A stretch of 32,794 nucleotides of DNA from NCBI GenBank assembly GCA_030681555.1, contig JAUXRW010000105.1:1-32794 (forward strand), given 5' to 3'. Made by a program: the position numbers and the translations under genes. This document shows positions 18,552 through 28,183 of this stretch, piece after piece. Every line of letters starts with the position of its first letter. Position 1 is the stretch's first letter. The DNA is from Acidimicrobiales bacterium (GTDB lineage Bacteria; Actinomycetota; Acidimicrobiia; Acidimicrobiales; VFJN01). The notes beneath the pieces were generated by a model. It was not told the origin of the DNA, did no database searches, and saw only the letters and a program-made list of their open reading frames with translations.

Positions 18552-18671
18552 TTGCCTGCTGCGGGCGTCGCTGCGCTCCTGCCTCCGCAGGTGCCTCCCG
18601 GCGACCGGCGGAGCCGGCTCGCCTTCGGCCTGGCCACCGACCACCGCAGCCACCTGATCGGTTCTCCGTGA
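18552..18671 (+). CDS. Possible bridging frame 8 (39 codons, TTG start) between rplQ and truA
   Basis: A TTG right after the rplQ stop opens a 39-codon frame ending in the GTGA that starts truA. The peptide is Ala/Pro/Leu-rich. The spacer holds a long inverted repeat, GGCGACCGGC against GCCGGCTCGCC around GGA, similar to stems in other spacers. TTG starts are less common and there is no clear Shine-Dalgarno, so this is the weakest of the series. Confidence 0.22.
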   Translation: MPAAGVAALLPPQVPPGDRRSRLAFGLATDHRSHLIGSP

Positions 18672-19462
18672 CGCTGTTCGATCCACCTCCTCCAGCGGCC
18701 TCCGGGCCGCTGGTGCGCGTTCGGATGGTGGTGGCCTACGACGGCTCGGGGTTCCACGGGTTCGCCGTGCAGCCGGGGGTGCGGACGGTCGGCGGAGCGC
18801 TGGGCGAGGCCATGTCGAAGGTCGTCCGGGTGCCGGTGGAGCTGACCTGCGCCGGGCGCACCGATGCCGGCGTGCACGCGTGGGGCCAGGTCGTCCATGT
18901 CGACCTGCCCGAGGGCACCGACCTGGACCGCCTGCACCGGTCGCTGCTGAAGCTCCTCGGTCCCGCTGTCGTGGTCCGCACCGTCGAAGCCGTCGACGGG
19001 AGCTTCGACGCCCGCTTCTCGGCCCGCTCGCGCACGTACCGCTACTCGGTGCACAACGACCCGGTGCCCGACCCGTTCACCGCCCACCTGGCCTGGCACG
19101 TGCCGGAGGCGCTCGATCTCGACCTGCTCGCCCTGGCCTGCGACCCCTTCGTTGGTGAGCACGACTTCTCGGCGTTCTGCCGGCGGCCCAAGGGTCCGGA
19201 CGACAGCGAGCCGGCGTCGCTCGTCCGGCGCGTGCTCCGGGCCGGGTGGACCGACCTCGGCGACGGGCGGCTGCGCTTCGAGGTCGAGGCGACGGCCTTC
19301 TGCCACCAGATGGTGCGCAGCATCGTCGGCACCATCGTCGCGGCCGGCCACGGCCGGACGCGGGCGGGCGACATCCGCGGCATCCTCTGGTCCGGGGATC
19401 GAGCCCAGGCCGCCCCGGTGGCGCCGCCGCACGGGCTGTGCCTGTGGCAGGTCGCGTACTAG
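18668..19462 (+). CDS. truA: tRNA pseudouridine(38-40) synthase
   Basis: TruA converts uridines 38 to 40 of the tRNA anticodon arm to pseudouridine. The 264 residues contain MVVAYDGSGFHGFAVQPGVRTV, the catalytic-aspartate motif CAGRTDAGVHAWGQV (D66), FDARFSARSRTYRYSV, and the C-terminal elements VEATAFCHQMVRSIVGTIVAAG. The start GTG gives a short N-terminal segment (TLFDPPPPAASG) before the core; an alternative start closer to VRVRMVV is possible. The gene sits between rplQ and rplM, as in many actinobacteria. Confidence 0.95.
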   Translation: MTLFDPPPPAASGPLVRVRMVVAYDGSGFHGFAVQPGVRTVGGALGEAMSKVVRVPVELTCAGRTDAGVHAWGQVVHVDLPEGTDLDRLHRSLLKLLGPAVVVRTVEAVDGSFDARFSARSRTYRYSVHNDPVPDPFTAHLAWHVPEALDLDLLALACDPFVGEHDFSAFCRRPKGPDDSEPASLVRRVLRAGWTDLGDGRLRFEVEATAFCHQMVRSIVGTIVAAGHGRTRAGDIRGILWSGDRAQAAPVAPPHGLCLWQVAY

Positions 19463-20534: not shown

Positions 20535-21866
20535 GTGCTGAGGTTCGGGACCGATGGGGTTCGAGGGGTGGCGAACCTCGAGCTCACGCCTGAGCTCGTC
20601 CTCGCGCTCGGGCGCGCGGCTGCCCGGGTGCTGCGGGCCTCGCACTTCGTGGTGGGGCGCGACACCCGGAGGTCCGGGCCGCTGCTCGAGGCCGCGCTCG
20701 TCGCCGGCCTGACGGCGGAAGGGGCGGACGTGGAGCTGCTCGGCGTGGCGCCGACGCCGGCGGTGGCCTGGCTCTCCGCGCGCGACGGCCTCGCCGGGGC
20801 GGTCATCTCCGCTTCGCACAACCCGTACCAGGACAACGGCGTGAAGCTGTTCGGGCCGGGCGGGCGCAAGCTGAGCGACGAGATCGAGGACGCCCTCGAG
20901 GCCGAGCTGCACGCACTGCTGCACGGCGAGGCCCTGCGCGATCCGCTGGTAGGGGCGTCCGTGGGCACCGTCACGGAGGGCGGCGCCGACGTGGCGCGGT
21001 GGATGGAGTCGGTGGTGTCGTCCACCGACGGACGGGGACTGCAGGGGCTGCGCGTGGTGGTCGACTGCGCCAACGGCGCCGCCACCCTCCTCGGTCCGAA
21101 GGTGCTCCGGGCGCTCGGCGCGCACGTCGAGGTGCTCCACGCCGACCCCGACGGCACGAACATCAACGAGCGGTCGGGCTCGACGCACCCGGCAGATCTC
21201 CGGCGTGCCGTCGTGCAGTCGGGCGCCGATGCCGGCATCGCGTTCGACGGCGACGCCGACCGGGCGCTGGCCGTCGACGCCGCGGGTCGCCTGATCGACG
21301 GCGACCAGATCATGGCCATCGTCGCCATCGACCGGAAGGCGCGCGGCGTCCTCGTTGACGATGCCGTGGTGGTGACCGTCATGACCAACCTCGGCTTCCG
21401 TCGGGGGATGGCCGACCACGGGATCGACGTGATCGAGGTGCCCGTCGGCGATCGCCACGTGCTCGCCGTCCTCGACCAGCGAGGGCTCAGCCTGGGCGGC
21501 GAGCAGAGCGGTCACGTCATCTTCCACGACCTCGCCACGACCGGGGACGGCCTGCTCACCGCCGTCCAGCTGCTCGATGTCGTCGCCCACTCGGGGCGCC
21601 CGCTCGGGGAGCTGGCGGACGCTGCGATGACGAAGCTGCCGCAGGTGCTGCGCAACGTCGCCGTGCCCGCGGCAGGGCGAGACGTGGCCGCCGAGCTCAC
21701 GGCCGAGGTGGCCGCCGCCGAGGCGGAGCTGGGCGAGCACGGGCGGGTCCTCCTGCGCCCGAGCGGCACCGAGCCGCTGGTCCGGGTGATGGTCGAGGCC
21801 CCCACGATGGACCAGGCGGAGGGCCTTGCGGACCGCCTCGCCGGAGCCGTCGCCGAGCTCGGGTAG
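20535..21866 (+). CDS. glmM: Phosphoglucosamine mutase
   Basis: GlmM interconverts glucosamine-6-phosphate and glucosamine-1-phosphate on the way to UDP-GlcNAc. The 443 residues start LRFGTDGVRGVAN and hold the active phosphoserine loop ISASHNPYQDNGVK (S94), the metal-binding DGDADR (238-243), the sugar-binding GGEQSGH and the C-terminal phosphate-binding RPSGTEPLVRVMVE. Length is normal. The start is GTG with no strong Shine-Dalgarno. It precedes the GlmS-like gene, which would supply its substrate. Confidence 0.97.
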   Translation: MLRFGTDGVRGVANLELTPELVLALGRAAARVLRASHFVVGRDTRRSGPLLEAALVAGLTAEGADVELLGVAPTPAVAWLSARDGLAGAVISASHNPYQDNGVKLFGPGGRKLSDEIEDALEAELHALLHGEALRDPLVGASVGTVTEGGADVARWMESVVSSTDGRGLQGLRVVVDCANGAATLLGPKVLRALGAHVEVLHADPDGTNINERSGSTHPADLRRAVVQSGADAGIAFDGDADRALAVDAAGRLIDGDQIMAIVAIDRKARGVLVDDAVVVTVMTNLGFRRGMADHGIDVIEVPVGDRHVLAVLDQRGLSLGGEQSGHVIFHDLATTGDGLLTAVQLLDVVAHSGRPLGELADAAMTKLPQVLRNVAVPAAGRDVAAELTAEVAAAEAELGEHGRVLLRPSGTEPLVRVMVEAPTMDQAEGLADRLAGAVAELG

Positions 21867-21919
21867 ATCCGGCCGTAGCGGTACGCTGATCGGGTTCCCG
21901 ACCCGGAAGGACCGCAGCC

Positions 21920-24900
21920 GTGTGCGGCATCATCGCCCTCGTGCGCGCCCCCGGCGCTCGTCGCCACTGGGCCGCGTCGGACGTCCTCGATCGCTTCGAC
22001 GCGATCCAGGCCGGCCTGTCCCCGGAGGGTGACCTCGTGGCCACGGCGGAGGCGGCGAAGCGGGCCCTCGCCGAGCTGGATGCCCTGCTGCTGGACACCG
22101 ACGGCGTCGCGCTCCTGGTGCGGGAGCAGAAGATCGCCATCCGGGCGCGCGCCGTATGCGCGACCGTCGCTGACTGGGTCGAGGCGGCCGAGTCGCGGCT
22201 CGACGTCGACGGGCCACCGCCGGGCCAGCCGCTCGAGGCGGCCAACGCCGCGCTCCTCTCGCTGAAGGACGCGCTCTGGGCCGTCGAGCGCGATCGGCTG
22301 CCGACGGCGGAGCGCGTGCGCGACTTCGTCGGGGCGGGGGCGTCGTGGTCGGCGATCGAGGTCGCCACGTCGATCCAGCAGGCCCTCAGCGCCCTCGACC
22401 GGCTGGAGGTCCGCGGGCGCGACTCGGCCGGCCTCACCGTTCTGGTCCAGCACCACGGTCTCGATTTGGCCGACCCGGCCATCGCCCGCCTCGTCGCGGC
22501 CCGAGACGCCGACGCGCTCTTCCGCTCGCTGTCGGTCCGCACGCCCGAGGGCCACCTGAGCTTCGTCTACAAGGCCGCTGCGGAGATCGGTGAGCTGGGG
22601 GACAACACCCGGAGCATCCGGACCACGATCGCCGGCGACGACCTCCTCCGCCTCGCGCTGGCCGCCGACACCGCGACGGCGGTCGTCCTCGGCCACACCC
22701 GTTGGGCGAGCGTCGGGATCATCTCCCAGCCGAACGCGCACCCGCTCGACAGCCGGGAGCTGGAGCGCCCCGACGGCCCGTACGTCACTGCGGTCCTCAA
22801 CGGCGACGTCGACAACTTCGCCGACCTCAAGGCGGCCGACGGCCTGCGCGTGGCGGCCGAGATCACCACCGACGCCAAGGTCATCCCCACGCTCGTCTCC
22901 CGACGGCTCGCCGGAGGTGTCGACCTCACCAGCGCGTTCCGGAACACGGTGGCTGCGTTCGAGGGGTCGGTGGCCATCGCCGCCAGCTCGGCGTCGCAGC
23001 CCGACCAGCTGCTGCTGGCGCTGCGGGGGAGCGGGCAGGCGCTCTACGTCGGGCTCCTCCCCGGCTGCTTCGTCGTCGCCTCCGAGCCCTACGGCGTGGT
23101 GGAGCTCACCGACACCTACCTCCGCATGGACGGGGAGACGCCGGCCAACGAGGACAACCCCACCGCCAGCCGCGGGCAGATCGTGCGGCTCGACGGCGCA
23201 CGGGCCGGACGCCACGAGGCGATCCTCCGGCAGTCCTACGACGGCACCGACCTCCCGGTGGCAGAGGCTGATCTCTCGCACGCCGAGATCACGACCCGGG
23301 ACATCGACCGCGGCGCGTTCCCGCACTTCCTCCTGAAGGAGATCACCGAGGCGCCGCAGAGCTTCCGCAAGACGCTGCGCGGCAAGCTCGTCGACGAGGG
23401 TGCCGGTCCGGTCGTGGTCCTCGGTCCCGACGTGCTCCCCCCTGACGTGGTCGACGACCTGCAGAGCGGCGCCATCGAGCGGGTCGAGGTCATCGGCCAG
23501 GGCACCGCCCACGTGGCGGGCCAGAGCCTGGCTGCTGCTCTGCTCATCGCGGCGCCCGACGGGCGGCTGCGGGTGCAGGCCCAGCAGGCGACCGAGCTCT
23601 CCGGCTTCGGGCTGCGGCCGGAGATGCGCGACACGCTCGTGATCGCGATCAGCCAGTCCGGCACCACCACCGACACGAACCGTACGGTCGACCTCGCGCG
23701 GGATCGCGGGGCTCGGGTCATCGCTATCGTCAACCGACGGAGCTCCGACCTCACGGACAAGGCCGACGGCGTCCTCTACACCTCCGACGGCCGTGACGTG
23801 GAGATGAGCGTCGCTTCGACGAAGGCCTTCTACTCGCAGATCGCGGCGGGCTTCCTCCTCGCCTGGGCCATCGCCACCGAAGTGGGGGGCACCGTCGACC
23901 CCGAGGTGGTGAGCGCCCTGCGCTCCCTCCCGGAGGCCTTGGAGGCCACGGTCTCGCGCCGTGCCGCCGTGGCGGCGGTGGCCCAGCAGCTCGCCCCCCC
24001 GAAGCGGTACTGGGCCATCGTTGGCAACGGGAGCAACCGCATCGCGGCGGAGGAGCTGCGGATCAAGCTGAGCGAGCTCTGCTACAAGGCCATCGCCTGC
24101 GACGCCACCGAGGACAAGAAGCACATCGACCTCTCCTCCGAGCCGCTCATCCTCGTGTGCGCCGCGGGCCTCGAGGGCTCGACCGCCGACGACGTGGCCA
24201 AGGAGGTCGCGATCTACCGCGCCCACAAGGCCACACCGATCGTGCTGGCCAGCGACGGGGAGGAGCGCTTCGCCGCTGCGCTGCAGGTGCTCTTCGTGCC
24301 GGCGACGCACCCGCAGCTCGCCTTCGTGCTCGCCTGCATGGCGGGCCACCTGTTCGGCTACGAGGCGGCGCTGGCCATCGACGCACAGGCCCTGCCGCTG
24401 CGCGCCGCCCGGGCGGCCATCGAGGAGGCCGTCGGCGAGTCGGCGGCCACGGACGGCGACGACCTCCTCCGCTCGCTCCGCCCGGCGATGGCGCGGGCGT
24501 CCGGCCAGTTCTTCGACGGGCTGCGCAGCGGTGCCTACGACGGGCACCTCGAGGCGAGCACCGCAGTGCGGCTCGCGTCGTCGTTGCGCTACGCCGTGGG
24601 CGTGGCTCCCCTCGAGTCGTACCAGGCCGAGCACGGGCGGATCGGCACTCCGGCGGTCGTCATCGACGACCTGACCGCCGCCCTCACCCAGGGCATCGAG
24701 GAGCTCACCCGCCCCGTCGACGCCATCAAGCACCAGGCCAAGACGGTGACCGTCGGCATCTCCCGCAGCGACGAGACCCTCCTCCAGCCCGCCCTCGTGC
24801 AGGCCGTGCTGGCGGCGGGCACCGCGCGCGACCGGCTCACCTACAAGACCCTCCGCACGCTCGCCGACCTCGACCCGGCCGTTGCCGAGGTCACCGGCTG

Positions 24901-25348
24901 GATCCGCTACGAGATCGAGGGCGATGCGGAGGACGGCGAGGTGCCCGTGGCGGTGGTCGACCGCGGAGGCATCGCCCTCGACATCCCCACGCGGGCGGAG
25001 AAGATCGGCACCCTGCGGGGCACGAAGCACACCGTCGCCCTCGAGCGGCAGGTGTTCGTCACCCGGGGCCGCAAGGACGGGCGCACGATCGTCATCGTGC
25101 CGGAGACCAAGGACGACCGCGCCACCGGGATCACGCTGCTCCACGTCCGCTTCCACGACCACCTCTCCGTGGGCGCGGCTCGCGGCGCCCTGCAGGGGTA
25201 CCGCAACCGGTGGGCCGCCCTGCGGGACGCCGTGCTCGAGACGGAGCCGACCTTCCGGGACGACCTGCTCACGACCGTGCCGACGGTTGATCTGCTGGTG
25301 GCCCCGTTGGCCGATCTGGCCGACCGCTGGCGCACCAAGGCCTCGTGA
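21920..25348 (+). CDS. glmS: Oversized GlmS-like glutamine-fructose-6-phosphate aminotransferase (1142 residues)
   Basis: GlmS makes glucosamine-6-phosphate from fructose-6-phosphate and glutamine. Domains: a class II glutaminase start MCGIIALV (C2 nucleophile), then about 130 extra residues before RGRDSAGL (165-171), GHTRWASVG (258-266), PNAHPL (271-276), NGDVDNF (294-300) and TTDAKVI (316-322). The isomerase half starts FLLKEITEAPQSFRKTLRG (470-488) and has ISQSGTTTDT (577-586), ASTKAF (632-637), GNGSNRIAAEELRIKLSELCY (702-722) and KKHID (733-737). The catalytic lysine tail of GlmS, usually the C-terminus (NLAKSVTVE), appears as HQAKTVTVG at 938-946 after another 115-residue insertion, and about 195 residues follow. 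Usual GlmS has about 610 residues. AAGGA precedes the GTG. Position between glmM and acpS supports a GlmS role; the added regions are unexplained. Confidence 0.88.
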   Translation: MCGIIALVRAPGARRHWAASDVLDRFDAIQAGLSPEGDLVATAEAAKRALAELDALLLDTDGVALLVREQKIAIRARAVCATVADWVEAAESRLDVDGPPPGQPLEAANAALLSLKDALWAVERDRLPTAERVRDFVGAGASWSAIEVATSIQQALSALDRLEVRGRDSAGLTVLVQHHGLDLADPAIARLVAARDADALFRSLSVRTPEGHLSFVYKAAAEIGELGDNTRSIRTTIAGDDLLRLALAADTATAVVLGHTRWASVGIISQPNAHPLDSRELERPDGPYVTAVLNGDVDNFADLKAADGLRVAAEITTDAKVIPTLVSRRLAGGVDLTSAFRNTVAAFEGSVAIAASSASQPDQLLLALRGSGQALYVGLLPGCFVVASEPYGVVELTDTYLRMDGETPANEDNPTASRGQIVRLDGARAGRHEAILRQSYDGTDLPVAEADLSHAEITTRDIDRGAFPHFLLKEITEAPQSFRKTLRGKLVDEGAGPVVVLGPDVLPPDVVDDLQSGAIERVEVIGQGTAHVAGQSLAAALLIAAPDGRLRVQAQQATELSGFGLRPEMRDTLVIAISQSGTTTDTNRTVDLARDRGARVIAIVNRRSSDLTDKADGVLYTSDGRDVEMSVASTKAFYSQIAAGFLLAWAIATEVGGTVDPEVVSALRSLPEALEATVSRRAAVAAVAQQLAPPKRYWAIVGNGSNRIAAEELRIKLSELCYKAIACDATEDKKHIDLSSEPLILVCAAGLEGSTADDVAKEVAIYRAHKATPIVLASDGEERFAAALQVLFVPATHPQLAFVLACMAGHLFGYEAALAIDAQALPLRAARAAIEEAVGESAATDGDDLLRSLRPAMARASGQFFDGLRSGAYDGHLEASTAVRLASSLRYAVGVAPLESYQAEHGRIGTPAVVIDDLTAALTQGIEELTRPVDAIKHQAKTVTVGISRSDETLLQPALVQAVLAAGTARDRLTYKTLRTLADLDPAVAEVTGWIRYEIEGDAEDGEVPVAVVDRGGIALDIPTRAEKIGTLRGTKHTVALERQVFVTRGRKDGRTIVIVPETKDDRATGITLLHVRFHDHLSVGAARGALQGYRNRWAALRDAVLETEPTFRDDLLTTVPTVDLLVAPLADLADRWRTKAS

Positions 25349-25719
25349 TCGGGATCGGCGTCGACCTCTGCGAGGTCGAGCGGATGCGCACAGCCCTCGA
25401 GCGCACCCCGACCCTCCGCGGCCGGGTGTTCACCGACGCCGAGCAGCACTACTGCGACCGGCGCAGCGATCCGACCGAGCGGTACGCCGCCCGGTTCGCA
25501 GCCAAGGAAGCGGTGCTGAAGGCCATGGGCCTGGGCGTCGGCGCCTGCAAGTGGCGCGAGATCGAGGTCATCAACGCACCCAGCGGCGCCCCGTCGGTAC
25601 TGCTGCACGGCGGGGCACGGCAGCTCGCCGACGAGCGAGGCATCGCCTCGTGGCGGCTCACCATGACCCATACCCACCGGACGGCAGAGGCCATCGCCGT
25701 CGCGCTGGCGACGGCATGA
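25345..25719 (+). CDS. acpS: Holo-[acyl-carrier-protein] synthase
   Basis: AcpS transfers the phosphopantetheine arm of CoA to acyl carrier protein. The 124 residues begin MIGIGVDLCEVERMR, with the magnesium ligand D7, and contain RYAARFAAKEAVLKAMGLG (E55 is the second ligand) and WREIEVINAPSGAPSVLLHG. It ends in a strand and helix with LTMTHTHRTAEAIAVAL. The GTG start overlaps the GlmS-like stop (GTGA) and the stop overlaps the next ATG (ATGA). Confidence 0.96.
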   Translation: MIGIGVDLCEVERMRTALERTPTLRGRVFTDAEQHYCDRRSDPTERYAARFAAKEAVLKAMGLGVGACKWREIEVINAPSGAPSVLLHGGARQLADERGIASWRLTMTHTHRTAEAIAVALATA

Positions 25720-27068
25720 TCCCGATCGTCACGCCCGAGGAGATGGCGGCGATCGACGCCGCTGCGCCCCAGCCCGTGGAGGTGCTCATCGAGCGGGCGG
25801 GCGCAGCCGTCGCGCGCACGGCCCTCGAGCTTCTCGGCGGCGCCTACGGGCGGCGCGTCGTGGTGCTGGCCGGGAAGGGCAACAACGGTGCCGACGGTCG
25901 TTCGGCCGCCGCCCGGCTGCGCCGGCGCGGCGCGCGGGTGGAGGTGATCGACGCCGGCAGCTCGCCCGACCGCTTCGGTCCGGCCGACCTGGTGATCGAT
26001 GCCGCCTACGGCACCGGGTTCCACGGGCAGCACCACCCGCCCGAGCCGGGCGGGGCCCCCGTCCTCGCCGTCGACATCCCCAGTGGCGTGTCCGGCCTCA
26101 CGGGGGAGGTGGGGGGTTGGGCGCTCCCTGCCGTCCGCACCGTCACGTTCGCGGCGTACAAGCCGGGGCTGCTCCTCGAGCCCGGTCGGGGTCTGGCGGG
26201 AGAGGTCGAGGTGGCCGACATCGGCCTCGACGTGGCAGGCGCGGCCGCGGGGATCGTCGAGCGCGCCGACGTCGCGGCCTACCTGCCACGGCGGTCGGTC
26301 GCCTCCCACAAGTGGCGGGCCGCGGTGCTGGTCGTGGCCGGTTCGCCCGGAATGGCCGGGGCGGCACAGCTCGCGGCCGCCGCCGCGCAGCGCGCCGGTG
26401 CGGGGATGGTACGGCTCGCCTCGCCAGGCTTCGACGACCCCACCCGCCCCACCGAGGCGGTGGGCATCCCGCTGCCGGCGCGCGGCTGGGCGGACGCCCT
26501 CCTCGGCGCCGTCGGGCGCGAGCACGCCATGGTGATCGGCCCGGGGCTCGGAGCGGGGGACGCCACCCGCCAGGGTGTGCGCAAGGTGCTCGCGCACACG
26601 GACCTGCCCGCGGTGATCGACGGCGACGGCCTCACCGTGCTCGGCGTGGACGCTGCGGACGTGCTGCCGGAGCGAGCCGCCCCCACGGTGCTGACACCGC
26701 ACGACGGCGAGTTCGAGCGGCTCGTCGGGCACCCACCGGGAGCCGACCGACTGGCCGCCGCCCGGCAGCTGGCCGCTGCCACCGGAGCCGTCGTGCTGCT
26801 GAAGGGCCCGGTCACGATCGTGGCCGCGCCCGATGGCGAGGTGCAGGTGGTCACCGCCGGTGATGCCCGGCTGGCTACGGCCGGAACGGGCGACGTGCTC
26901 AGCGGCATCATCGGCGCCCTCCTGGCCCAGGGCGTGCTGGCCATCGAAGCGGCGGCTGCGGGCGCCTGGCTGCACGGCCGGGCCGGGTCGCACGGTCCTG
27001 CACGCGGCCTCGTCGCCCACGACCTGCTCGACCTCCTGCCGAGCGCCCTGGCGGAGGTGGGGGCGTAG
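25716..27068 (+). CDS. nnr: Bifunctional NAD(P)HX epimerase/dehydratase
   Basis: The enzyme repairs hydrated NAD(P)H: the N-terminal epimerase (NnrE) interconverts NAD(P)HX epimers and the C-terminal ADP-dependent dehydratase (NnrD) restores NAD(P)H. In 450 residues it shows GKGNNGADGR (53-62) and DIPSGVSG (121-128) of the epimerase, then HKWRAAVLVVAGSPGMAGAA, VIGPGLG (274-280), VIDGDGL (301-307), LTPHDGEFERL (327-337), LKGPVTIV and the catalytic GTGDVLSG (391-398, D394). The epimerase half is short, about 190 residues. The ATG overlaps the acpS stop, and the stop overlaps alr. Confidence 0.95.
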   Translation: MIPIVTPEEMAAIDAAAPQPVEVLIERAGAAVARTALELLGGAYGRRVVVLAGKGNNGADGRSAAARLRRRGARVEVIDAGSSPDRFGPADLVIDAAYGTGFHGQHHPPEPGGAPVLAVDIPSGVSGLTGEVGGWALPAVRTVTFAAYKPGLLLEPGRGLAGEVEVADIGLDVAGAAAGIVERADVAAYLPRRSVASHKWRAAVLVVAGSPGMAGAAQLAAAAAQRAGAGMVRLASPGFDDPTRPTEAVGIPLPARGWADALLGAVGREHAMVIGPGLGAGDATRQGVRKVLAHTDLPAVIDGDGLTVLGVDAADVLPERAAPTVLTPHDGEFERLVGHPPGADRLAAARQLAAATGAVVLLKGPVTIVAAPDGEVQVVTAGDARLATAGTGDVLSGIIGALLAQGVLAIEAAAAGAWLHGRAGSHGPARGLVAHDLLDLLPSALAEVGA

Positions 27069-28183
27069 TGGCCCGGGCGTGGGCCGAGGTGTCGCTCGGG
27101 GCCGTGGCGGCGAACGTCGCTGCGCTGCGGGCCGAGGTGGCGCCGGCGGAGGTGTGCGCGGTCGTGAAGGCCGACGGGTACGGCCACGGTGCCGCTCCGG
27201 TCGCTCGCGCGGCGCTGGCCGCCGGTGCCGGGTGGCTGGCGGTCGCGCAGGTCCCGGAGGCCACCGAGCTGCGCGATGCCGGGATCGACGCGCCCATCCT
27301 CCTGCTGTCCGAGCCTCGGCTGTCCGAGCTCGACGAGGCGCTGGCCGCCCGCATCCGGATCACGGTGTACACCCCGGAGGTCATCGAGCGCCTCGGCAGG
27401 GCTGCTGGTGCGGCCGGACCGCCGGTGCCGGTCCACCTGAAGGTCGACACGGGCATGCACCGCGTCGGCGCCGCGCCGGAGGACGTGGTGGCACTGGCGA
27501 AGGCGATCGGGGCGCACCCGAGCCTCGCTCTCGAAGCCGTGTGGACGCACTGCGCGGTCGCGGACGAGCCCGACCACCCCTTCACCGCCGAGCAGCTGGA
27601 GCGGTACGAGGCGTCGCTGGCCGACCTCGCGGCCGCCGGGTTCCGGGTGCCGCTGCGCCACGCCGCCAACTCGGCGGCCGCCATCGCTCACCCGGCCAGC
27701 CGCTACGACCTCGTGCGCTGCGGCATCGCCGTGTACGGCATCCCCCCGTCTCCGGCGCTGGCCGGCTCCGTCGCCCTCGTCCCTGTGGTGCGGCTGGCCA
27801 CCGAGGTCGCCGCGGTGAAGCGCGTCGCCGCCGGCGACGGCATCTCGTACGGGCTGCGCCACCGGCTCGAGCGCGAGAGCCTCGTGGCCACCCTGCCGAT
27901 CGGCTACGCCGACGGCGTGTTCCGCAGCCTCAGCCGCTCCGGACAGGACGTGCTCGTCGGCGGTCGCCGTCAACCGATGGTGGGCACGATCACCATGGAC
28001 CAGCTGATGGTCGACCTCGGCCCGGACAGCGAGGTCCGGGTGGGCGACGAGGTGGTCCTGCTGGGCGCGCAGGGGGAGGAGCGCATCTCACCGGACGAGT
28101 GGGCGGAGCGGCTCGACACCATCTCCTACGAGGTCGTCTGCGCCATCGGCGCGCGGGTCGAGCGCCGCTACACGGCGTCGTAG
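27068..28183 (+). CDS. alr: Alanine racemase
   Basis: Alanine racemase makes D-alanine for peptidoglycan with pyridoxal phosphate. The 371 residues contain the cofactor lysine in [11 protein letters not shown] (K34), [12 protein letters not shown] (123-134), [17 protein letters not shown], the second catalytic base Y261 in [17 protein letters not shown] and [13 protein letters not shown]. Length is normal. The start is GTG sharing one base with the nnr stop (TAGTG). With glmM, glmS-like and nnr it forms a wall-precursor cluster common in actinobacteria. Confidence 0.96.

What the first reader, a model, noticed from the sequence alone, without database searches (positions are those of the whole stretch)
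21920..25348. GlmS-like protein almost twice the normal size
All catalytic landmarks of GlmS seem present (C2, GHTRW, NG, isomerase SQSG, the lysine loop), but about 130 residues are inserted right after MCGIIALV, about 40 before GHTRW, and about 115 between the last SIS helix and the lysine loop. It occupies the normal glmS locus. The insertions could give new regulation (for example UDP-GlcNAc or signalling control), a new oligomeric state or a different ammonia channel.
Basis: partly seen in the sequence, partly recalled or inferred. Interest (0 to 1): 0.7.

Follow-up and report, generated by a model that had tools for sequence, protein, structure and literature searches.

The report
Giant GlmS with extra sensor-like domain
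Many Acidimicrobiia-type bacteria seem to make the first sugar of their cell wall with an almost double-sized version of the normal enzyme GlmS, which takes the place of the ordinary gene and carries an added end domain that resembles small-molecule sensors, so this enzyme may be controlled in a way not seen in other bacteria.

Summary
21920-25348 (+) is one open frame of 1142 aa with the GlmS glutaminase and double-SIS isomerase core and 23 of 27 checked active-site positions. It is the only GlmS candidate in its genome (98% complete); no NagB or NagB-II passes its cut-off there. The long form is a conserved family. In 198 genomes of the class, 104 have ordinary GlmS over the cut-off, 78 the long form, none both; in most loci both forms lie between glmM and acpS. 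AlphaFold (pLDDT 88) gives a GFAT/GlmS core. The C-domain (pLDDT 95) has no Pfam or PDB sequence match; its fold matches are weak, mostly PAS/GAF/Cache-type sensor domains, best a regulatory segment of the large glutamate dehydrogenase (Z 8.3, near background). Best reading: a working glucosamine-6-phosphate synthase with a built-in, probably allosteric, sensing module. Catalysis is strongly inferred, regulation moderately; the ligand is unknown. Seven PMC searches aimed at such a form listed no description. A new variant of a known enzyme.

The parts
21920..25348 (+). long glmS, 1142 aa, GTG start
21905..21910 (+). GGAAGG, ribosome-binding-site-like, 9 nt before the start
   Evidence: sequence printed; reading is inference
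21923..23137 (+). Ntn glutaminase part, residues 2-406, interrupted by inserts 1 and 2
   Evidence: PF13522 over its cut-off; aligned to 1xff chain B at Z 30.2, rmsd 1.8, 235 residues
21956..22369 (+). insert 1, residues 13-150, helical in the model, least conserved part (column identity 0.34 over residues 12-147)
22445..22546 (+). insert 2, residues 176-209
23306..24376 (+). isomerase, two SIS domains, residues 463-819
   Evidence: PF01380 over its cut-off; Z 39-42 to isolated isomerase domains of known GlmS/GFAT
24377..24703 (+). insert 3, residues 820-928, helical in the model
24731..24763 (+). C-tail loop (residues 938-948) with K941 (E. coli K603) at 24740-24742; pLDDT under 50 in the model
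24764..25345 (+). C-terminal domain, residues 949-1142, alpha/beta, weakly PAS/GAF/Cache-like
   Evidence: no Pfam (49) or PDB sequence match (48)
20535..21866 (+). glmM, phosphoglucosamine mutase, next step of the pathway
   Evidence: TIGR01455 over cut-off
25345..25719 (+). acpS, overlaps the glmS stop
25716..27068 (+). nnrE/NAD(P)H-hydrate dehydratase (YjeF)
27068..28183 (+). alr, alanine racemase (peptidoglycan precursor)
18668..19462 (+). truA

Best explanation
The protein is the cell's glutamine:fructose-6-phosphate aminotransferase (GlcN6P synthase), the only one found in its genome, feeding GlmM and GlmU for peptidoglycan. Glutamine is hydrolysed at Cys2 and the ammonia passes to fructose-6-phosphate bound in the double-SIS isomerase with Glu719, His735 and Lys941, as in E. 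coli GlmS. The C-terminal tail that carries the lysine is not the end of the chain here: it is tethered to a 194-residue PAS/GAF/Cache-like domain, which most likely binds a cytoplasmic metabolite and, by moving the lysine tail (with the helical inserts as scaffold or assembly surface), tunes the enzyme's activity. Shown: frame, predicted core fold, conserved catalytic positions, no second copy found, same locus, mutual exclusion with ordinary GlmS in the class sample. Inferred strongly: catalysis. Inferred with moderate weight: sensing by the C-domain. Unknown: the ligand and the sign of the effect.
For: Core: SIS and GATase_6 over Pfam cut-offs; the best PDB sequence matches are GlmS/GFAT; VIA-align Z 42.3 to human GFAT-1 (608 aligned, rmsd 4.2) and 41.7 to E. 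coli GlmS (593 of 608, rmsd 4.4), tied. Catalysis: 23 of 27 checked E. coli positions are identical in the window and in all 27 long forms put in that alignment, incl. C1, R73, W74, N98, G99, D123, K485, E488, H504, K603. Role: only TIGR01135 match apart from a PurF-like protein (PurF named from its sequence by recall); GlmM beside it, a GlmU-like protein at 348 of 367 bits, no NagB/NagB-II over cut-off. Replacement: 104 ordinary and 78 long among 198 class genomes, overlap 0, 41 expected if independent (relatedness not corrected). Position: glmM upstream in 23 of 24 long and 16 of 20 ordinary class loci, acpS downstream in 19 and 16. C-domain: AF2 pLDDT 95.1; top VIA row is residues 172-361 of M. 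smegmatis large GDH, Z 8.3, rmsd 4.8, 158 of 193 aligned; the other 49 listed rows, mostly GAF, PAS-like and Cache receptor domains, lie at Z 5.8-7.2; [quoted passage not shown] Column identity is 0.57 in the C-domain, 0.34 and 0.50 in inserts 1 and 3, 0.69 in the isomerase: the domain is under constraint.
Against: The C-domain matches are weak: no Foldseek hit below 1e-3, with poor superpositions (TM by query at most 0.47 in the listed rows); the tool's own note gives 7-8 as a typical best Z for models without a clear match, so Z 8.3 is hardly above that; hhalign against four large-GDH sequences was no better than two controls. The protein falls well under the curated TIGR01135 cut-off (234 against 418 bits). 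T76S, H77V, S303A and L601Q lie in or near the active sites (S303A also occurs in 10 of 30 ordinary class GlmS). GlmR (TIGR01826; the UDP-GlcNAc-responsive GlmS activator of Bacillus) is over its cut-off in this genome and in 45 of 78 long-form genomes, against 55 of 104 ordinary ones (55 of 70 if the small-genome family f21 is left out), so the domain does not simply replace it. One genome outside the class (G237) matches both forms. I know of no activity data.
Confidence: 0.6

Rival explanations
1. The added parts are structural: the inserts and C-domain build a larger or more stable oligomer (or a scaffold with GlmM or other cell-wall enzymes) and bind no ligand; the PAS-like fold is incidental.
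For: Inserts 1 and 3 are helical, a usual form of assembly surface; the C-domain match is weak; in the large GDH the N- and C-terminal regions make the subunit contacts (PMC8175468, passages).
Against: The C-domain is conserved better than inserts 1 and 3 and has 28 invariant columns in 38 sequences, many polar or charged, more than packing alone would suggest, though that is judgement.
Confidence: 0.27
2. The core has drifted to a different sugar-phosphate or amino donor, so the protein makes another amino sugar and GlcN6P comes from elsewhere.
For: The stem branch of the long group is 7.6 changes per column; the residues around H504 and several active-site neighbours differ; score far below the GlmS equivalog cut-off.
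Against: Positions S347, Q348, S349, T352, V399, K485, E488, H504 and K603 are kept; it sits directly after glmM; no other GlcN6P source was found; exchange with ordinary GlmS at the same locus.
Confidence: 0.08
3. Artefact: fused genes, a frameshift, or a misassembled contig.
For: One relative (G149) has the gene broken by a frame change, so such errors exist in the family.
Against: The same long open architecture in the loci, one of them a complete chromosome (L006), and in single-contig genomes of the class sample (G002, G003, G027, G110, G157, G190).
Confidence: 0.01

Closest known systems
Bacterial GlmS (E. coli GlmS, PDB 2j6h/1jxa)
   Same: Glutaminase plus double-SIS fold, N-terminal Cys, 23 of 27 checked positions, glmM beside it in the window
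   Different: 26% identity, 1142 against 608 aa, three large inserts and a 196-aa extension after the lysine tail
Human/yeast GFAT (PDB 6r4e etc.)
   Same: Whole-chain fold match tied with E. coli GlmS; eukaryotic GFAT is feedback-regulated by UDP-GlcNAc at the isomerase domain, with a role for the interdomain linker (passages of PMC7000685)
   Different: The aligned human chain ends at residue 681 at the lysine tail, so it has no such C-domain; its regulatory site is in the isomerase domain, not a separate domain
Large glutamate dehydrogenases (L-GDH180, PDB 7jsr)
   Same: First fold match of the C-domain; also a central nitrogen enzyme enlarged by domains proposed as metabolic sensors
   Different: No sequence relation detected; weak Z; different enzyme; the sensory segment is N-terminal there. 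Which of its domains residues 172-361 form I did not check
GlmR (YvcK) control of GlmS in Bacillus subtilis
   Same: Known post-translational control of GlmS answering to UDP-GlcNAc (abstract of PMC7525490)
   Different: A separate protein acts there; here a domain on the enzyme itself is proposed

Membership tests
GlmS/GFAT enzymes (by architecture) | N-terminal Cys Ntn glutaminase with R73, W74, N98, G99, D123 equivalents | tested here: met
   T76S and H77V differ
GlmS/GFAT enzymes (by architecture) | Double-SIS isomerase with K485, E488, H504 equivalents | tested here: met
   S303A differs
GlmS/GFAT enzymes (by architecture) | Catalytic lysine (K603) in the ..AKSVTVE tail | tested here: met
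   K941 in AKTVTV, invariant in 75 of 75 rows
GlmS/GFAT enzymes (by architecture) | That tail is the C-terminus of the chain | tested here: not met
   196 residues follow it
NCBIfam TIGR01135 (glmS equivalog) | Score over the curated cut-off (418 bits) | tested here: not met
   234 bits
GlcN6P synthase (function) | Makes GlcN6P from fructose-6-phosphate and glutamine | not testable with these tools
   inferred from residues, locus and lack of another detected source
PAS/GAF/Cache sensor domains (C-domain) | Sensor-type fold | tested here: inconclusive
   Best Z 8.3 (large GDH), the other listed rows Z 5.8-7.2; Foldseek best E 1.3e-3
PAS/GAF/Cache sensor domains (C-domain) | Sequence match to a Pfam family of that kind | tested here: not met
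   38 members scanned; best E 0.013 to GCIP_N; a Cache-like family in 1 of 38 at E 0.12
PAS/GAF/Cache sensor domains (C-domain) | Binds a ligand | not testable with these tools
   -

The most novel reading that the evidence does not exclude
A self-sensing GlcN6P synthase: a strongly diverged GlmS lineage that took over the glmS locus in a large part of Acidimicrobiia and carries its own PAS/GAF-like metabolite sensor wired to the mobile lysine tail, giving cell-wall precursor synthesis a direct in-cis allosteric switch that I have not seen described for any GlmS.
Probability: 0.4. Interest if true: 0.75.

Novelty: new variant of a known kind. Interest (0 to 1): 0.6.

Why it matters
GlmS commits carbon and nitrogen to the cell wall, and how bacteria control it differs between groups (ribozyme and small RNAs recalled; GlmR). 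A double-sized form that excludes the ordinary one in 78 of 198 sampled genomes of the class suggests a further solution and gives a clean target for biochemistry. It also shows that the curated GlmS model scores the likely essential enzyme of these genomes far below its cut-off, so pathway reconstructions that rely on it may report a false gap.

Tried and rejected
A second, ordinary glmS in the genome: none found; the other match is PurF-like. C-domain as a known Pfam or PDB sequence family: none. Sequence relation of the C-domain to large GDH: hhalign probability 0.1, no better than GlmM and Alr controls. Replacement of GlmR by the domain: GlmR is over its cut-off in 45 of 78 long-form and 55 of 104 ordinary genomes; leaving out the small-genome family f21 (34 ordinary genomes) makes it 55 of 70 (58 with fragments, against 46 of 78; Fisher p 0.002). 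The sign depends on f21 and the losses follow families, so I draw nothing from it. Viral and plasmid origin: 62 pattern matches in viral contigs, none a relative; 295 plasmid records match, none over 80% of the query, and in the 40 rows listed the match lies within residues 156-821; viral fold library only weak matches, best E 3.8e-3. Two weak C-domain hits (G181, G464) dropped as false; they look like methylmalonyl-CoA mutase (recall from sequence). The large-GDH family PF05088 is not found in G000.

Not reached: phyla other than that of the window. The position of the C-domain and inserts in the dimer, and the ammonia channel, could not be examined, because model coordinates were not in the Python box. 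The C-domain searches scored only the 8 or 16 best first-look candidates per genome, so distant copies of the domain on other proteins could be missed.
Full report
OBSERVATION. The ORF at 21920-25348 (+) is 1142 aa and begins MCGIIALV. Against E. coli GlmS (L178), 596 residues align with 26.0% identity; the extra residues are 13-150, 176-209 and 820-928, six pieces of 5-13, and 947-1142.

IT IS A FAMILY. Because they are ranked by likeness to this query, that all 80 are long does not tell how common the form is. Of them 78 have the normal start and L005 and L030 run off the contig edge; lengths run from 1128 to 1183 aa. Most record titles name Acidimicrobiia, its orders or genera, or Actinomycetota; six name other groups (Bifidobacterium breve three times, Acidobacteria twice, Thermoanaerobacterales once), which I take for misnamed bins. 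That the window belongs to Acidimicrobiia is inferred from these titles; G000 itself is unnamed.

CORE AND CATALYSIS. Pfam SIS and GATase_6 pass their cut-offs; TIGR01135 matches at 234 bits, under its 418-bit cut-off. Of 27 E. coli positions that I checked (numbers and roles recalled), 23 are identical in the window, including the nucleophile, glutamine-site residues, S347/Q348/S349/T352, and K485, E488, H504 and K603. The four that differ are T76S, H77V, S303A and L601Q; H77 varies between V, I and M, the others are fixed in 27 long forms. AlphaFold2 with 75 aligned rows gave pLDDT 88.4 and pTM 0.82; the two segments under 50 (265-268 and 938-948) coincide with the loop after HTRWAS and the lysine tail, both mobile in known GlmS (recall). 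Foldseek's best PDB rows are human GFAT-1 and E. coli GlmS; VIA-align gives Z 42.3 and 41.7, a tie.

NO SECOND COPY; PATHWAY. In G000 (98.23% complete, 162 contigs) TIGR01135 hits this gene and a PurF-like protein. GlmM lies directly upstream (TIGR01455 over cut-off); a GlmU-like protein scores 348 of a 367-bit cut-off (only 9 of the 14 control genomes pass that cut-off); NagB scores 32 of 237 and NagB-II hits only this gene. So this protein is the only source of GlcN6P that I could see.

MUTUAL EXCLUSION AT ONE LOCUS. In 198 genomes of the class, 104 carry a GlmS over the TIGR01135 cut-off and 79 match the C-domain model A2. One of the 79 (G181) is false, leaving 78; overlap 0. Sixteen have neither (15 plus G181); 11 of these are under 90% complete, and some (for example G192, G093, G197) have partial TIGR01135 matches. 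If independent, 41 would overlap, but relatedness inflates this. In the phylum draw of 396 genomes 32 match A2, 31 truly, 9 of them outside the class. Of these 9, checked for ordinary GlmS, one (G237, 6.5 Mb, 5% contamination) has both: the only exception seen, possibly a mixed bin. In the 24 long-form class loci, glmM is upstream on the same strand in 23 and acpS downstream in 19; in 20 ordinary-form loci the figures are 16 and 16. Seven further long-form loci of that call lie outside the class: one (L173) has the same neighbours; L170, L171, L172 and L174 show none of them; L175 and L176 are contig fragments. Among the 80 loci, glmM is upstream in 63 of the 64 with room, and acpS present in 64 of the 74 with room downstream. 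In L171 the neighbours are a methionyl aminopeptidase and an RtcB-like gene.

HISTORY. In a tree of the neighbouring GlmM (94 of 126 usable rows, thinned by me), the long label needs at least 7 changes, 3 if only starred branches are trusted. All 57 long rows lie in one starred clade of 65, which also holds 8 ordinary rows. In a tree of the GlmS core (87 rows, 599 columns) the 18 long rows are one group on a stem of 7.6 changes per column (support 100). That stem joins three ordinary class rows with a starred branch, but so long a branch may be misplaced. The ordinary GlmS of the eight genomes that fall inside the long clade of the GlmM tree, plus one same-order genome without usable GlmM, form two groups. 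I read this as one gain of an already very divergent GlmS, then a few in-place exchanges back to ordinary GlmS; other histories are possible. The source lineage cannot be told.

C-TERMINAL DOMAIN. Residues 950-1142 folded alone reach pLDDT 95.1. There is no Pfam family and no PDB sequence match below E 0.33. Foldseek finds nothing below 1e-3; of the 50 rows listed, I count 33 named as GAF, LOV, sensor or receptor ligand-binding domains, with poor superpositions. VIA-align ranks residues 172-361 of the M. smegmatis large glutamate dehydrogenase first (Z 8.3, rmsd 4.8, 158 aligned); the other 49 rows lie at Z 5.8-7.2 and are mostly GAF, PAS-like and Cache domains. The tool's note gives 7-8 as a usual best Z without a clear match, so this is a lead. 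[quoted passage not shown] By sequence no relation was detected. Mean column identity is 0.57 in this domain, 0.64 in the main glutaminase stretch, 0.69 in the isomerase, 0.34 in insert 1 and 0.50 in insert 3. In 38 rows 28 columns are invariant, among them R21, D22, R47, Y48, R76, K87, D104, R106 and E113 of the domain numbering. The cationic residues would suit an anionic ligand, but this is a guess. In the two A2 searches I saw the domain on no other kind of protein, apart from the two weak false hits; only 8 or 16 candidates per genome were scored, and fragments at contig ends were not checked.

MECHANISM. I propose a normal GlmS reaction whose lysine tail, free in other GlmS, is tethered to a sensor-like domain, so that ligand binding can change tail closure or domain orientation. 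In eukaryotic GFAT, UDP-GlcNAc bound at the isomerase domain inhibits the glutaminase, with a role for the interdomain linker (passages of PMC7000685); in Bacillus, GlmR stimulates GlmS and UDP-GlcNAc prevents this (abstract of PMC7525490). These show that GlmS-type enzymes are controlled at this step, not that this one is. GlmR is over its cut-off in G000 and in 45 of 78 long-form genomes, so in-cis sensing would add to rather than replace it.

LITERATURE. Nine searches of the PMC library were made; seven aimed at a long or specially regulated GlmS, two at large GDH and GlmR (66, 86). Their listings (titles and starts of abstracts; capped lists) show no description of a long GlmS. Only open-licence PMC papers are held. 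A paper on molecular markers of Acidimicrobiia has no occurrence of glucosamine or fructose in its main text (find in PMC5962788).

VERDICT. The protein is a strongly diverged GlmS of a conserved long type, very probably the functional GlcN6P synthase of its cell. The regulatory reading is the best available but rests on a weak fold resemblance and on conservation.

Noticed in passing
G149:C1 (L166, 5735-7027 and 6834-9269, - strand): The long glmS of this relative is broken by a frame change in a two-contig genome; probably a sequencing error.
   Followed up: partly
G237 (L172, L208): The one genome seen that holds both the long and an ordinary GlmS; 6.5 Mb with 5% contamination, so possibly a mixed bin.
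   Followed up: partly
class draw, family f2 and f4 genomes: GlmR (TIGR01826) does not reach its cut-off in many long-form genomes of these families, including single-contig ones (G002, G027, G157).
   Followed up: partly
G181, G054, G148: Genomes 95-98% complete with neither GlmS form detected; how they make GlcN6P is open.
   Followed up: no
several phylum genomes: Proteins matching only the isomerase half of GlmS (TIGR01135 about 253-602), in open frames of about 350-630 aa, probably NagB-II-like or other SIS proteins.
   Followed up: no
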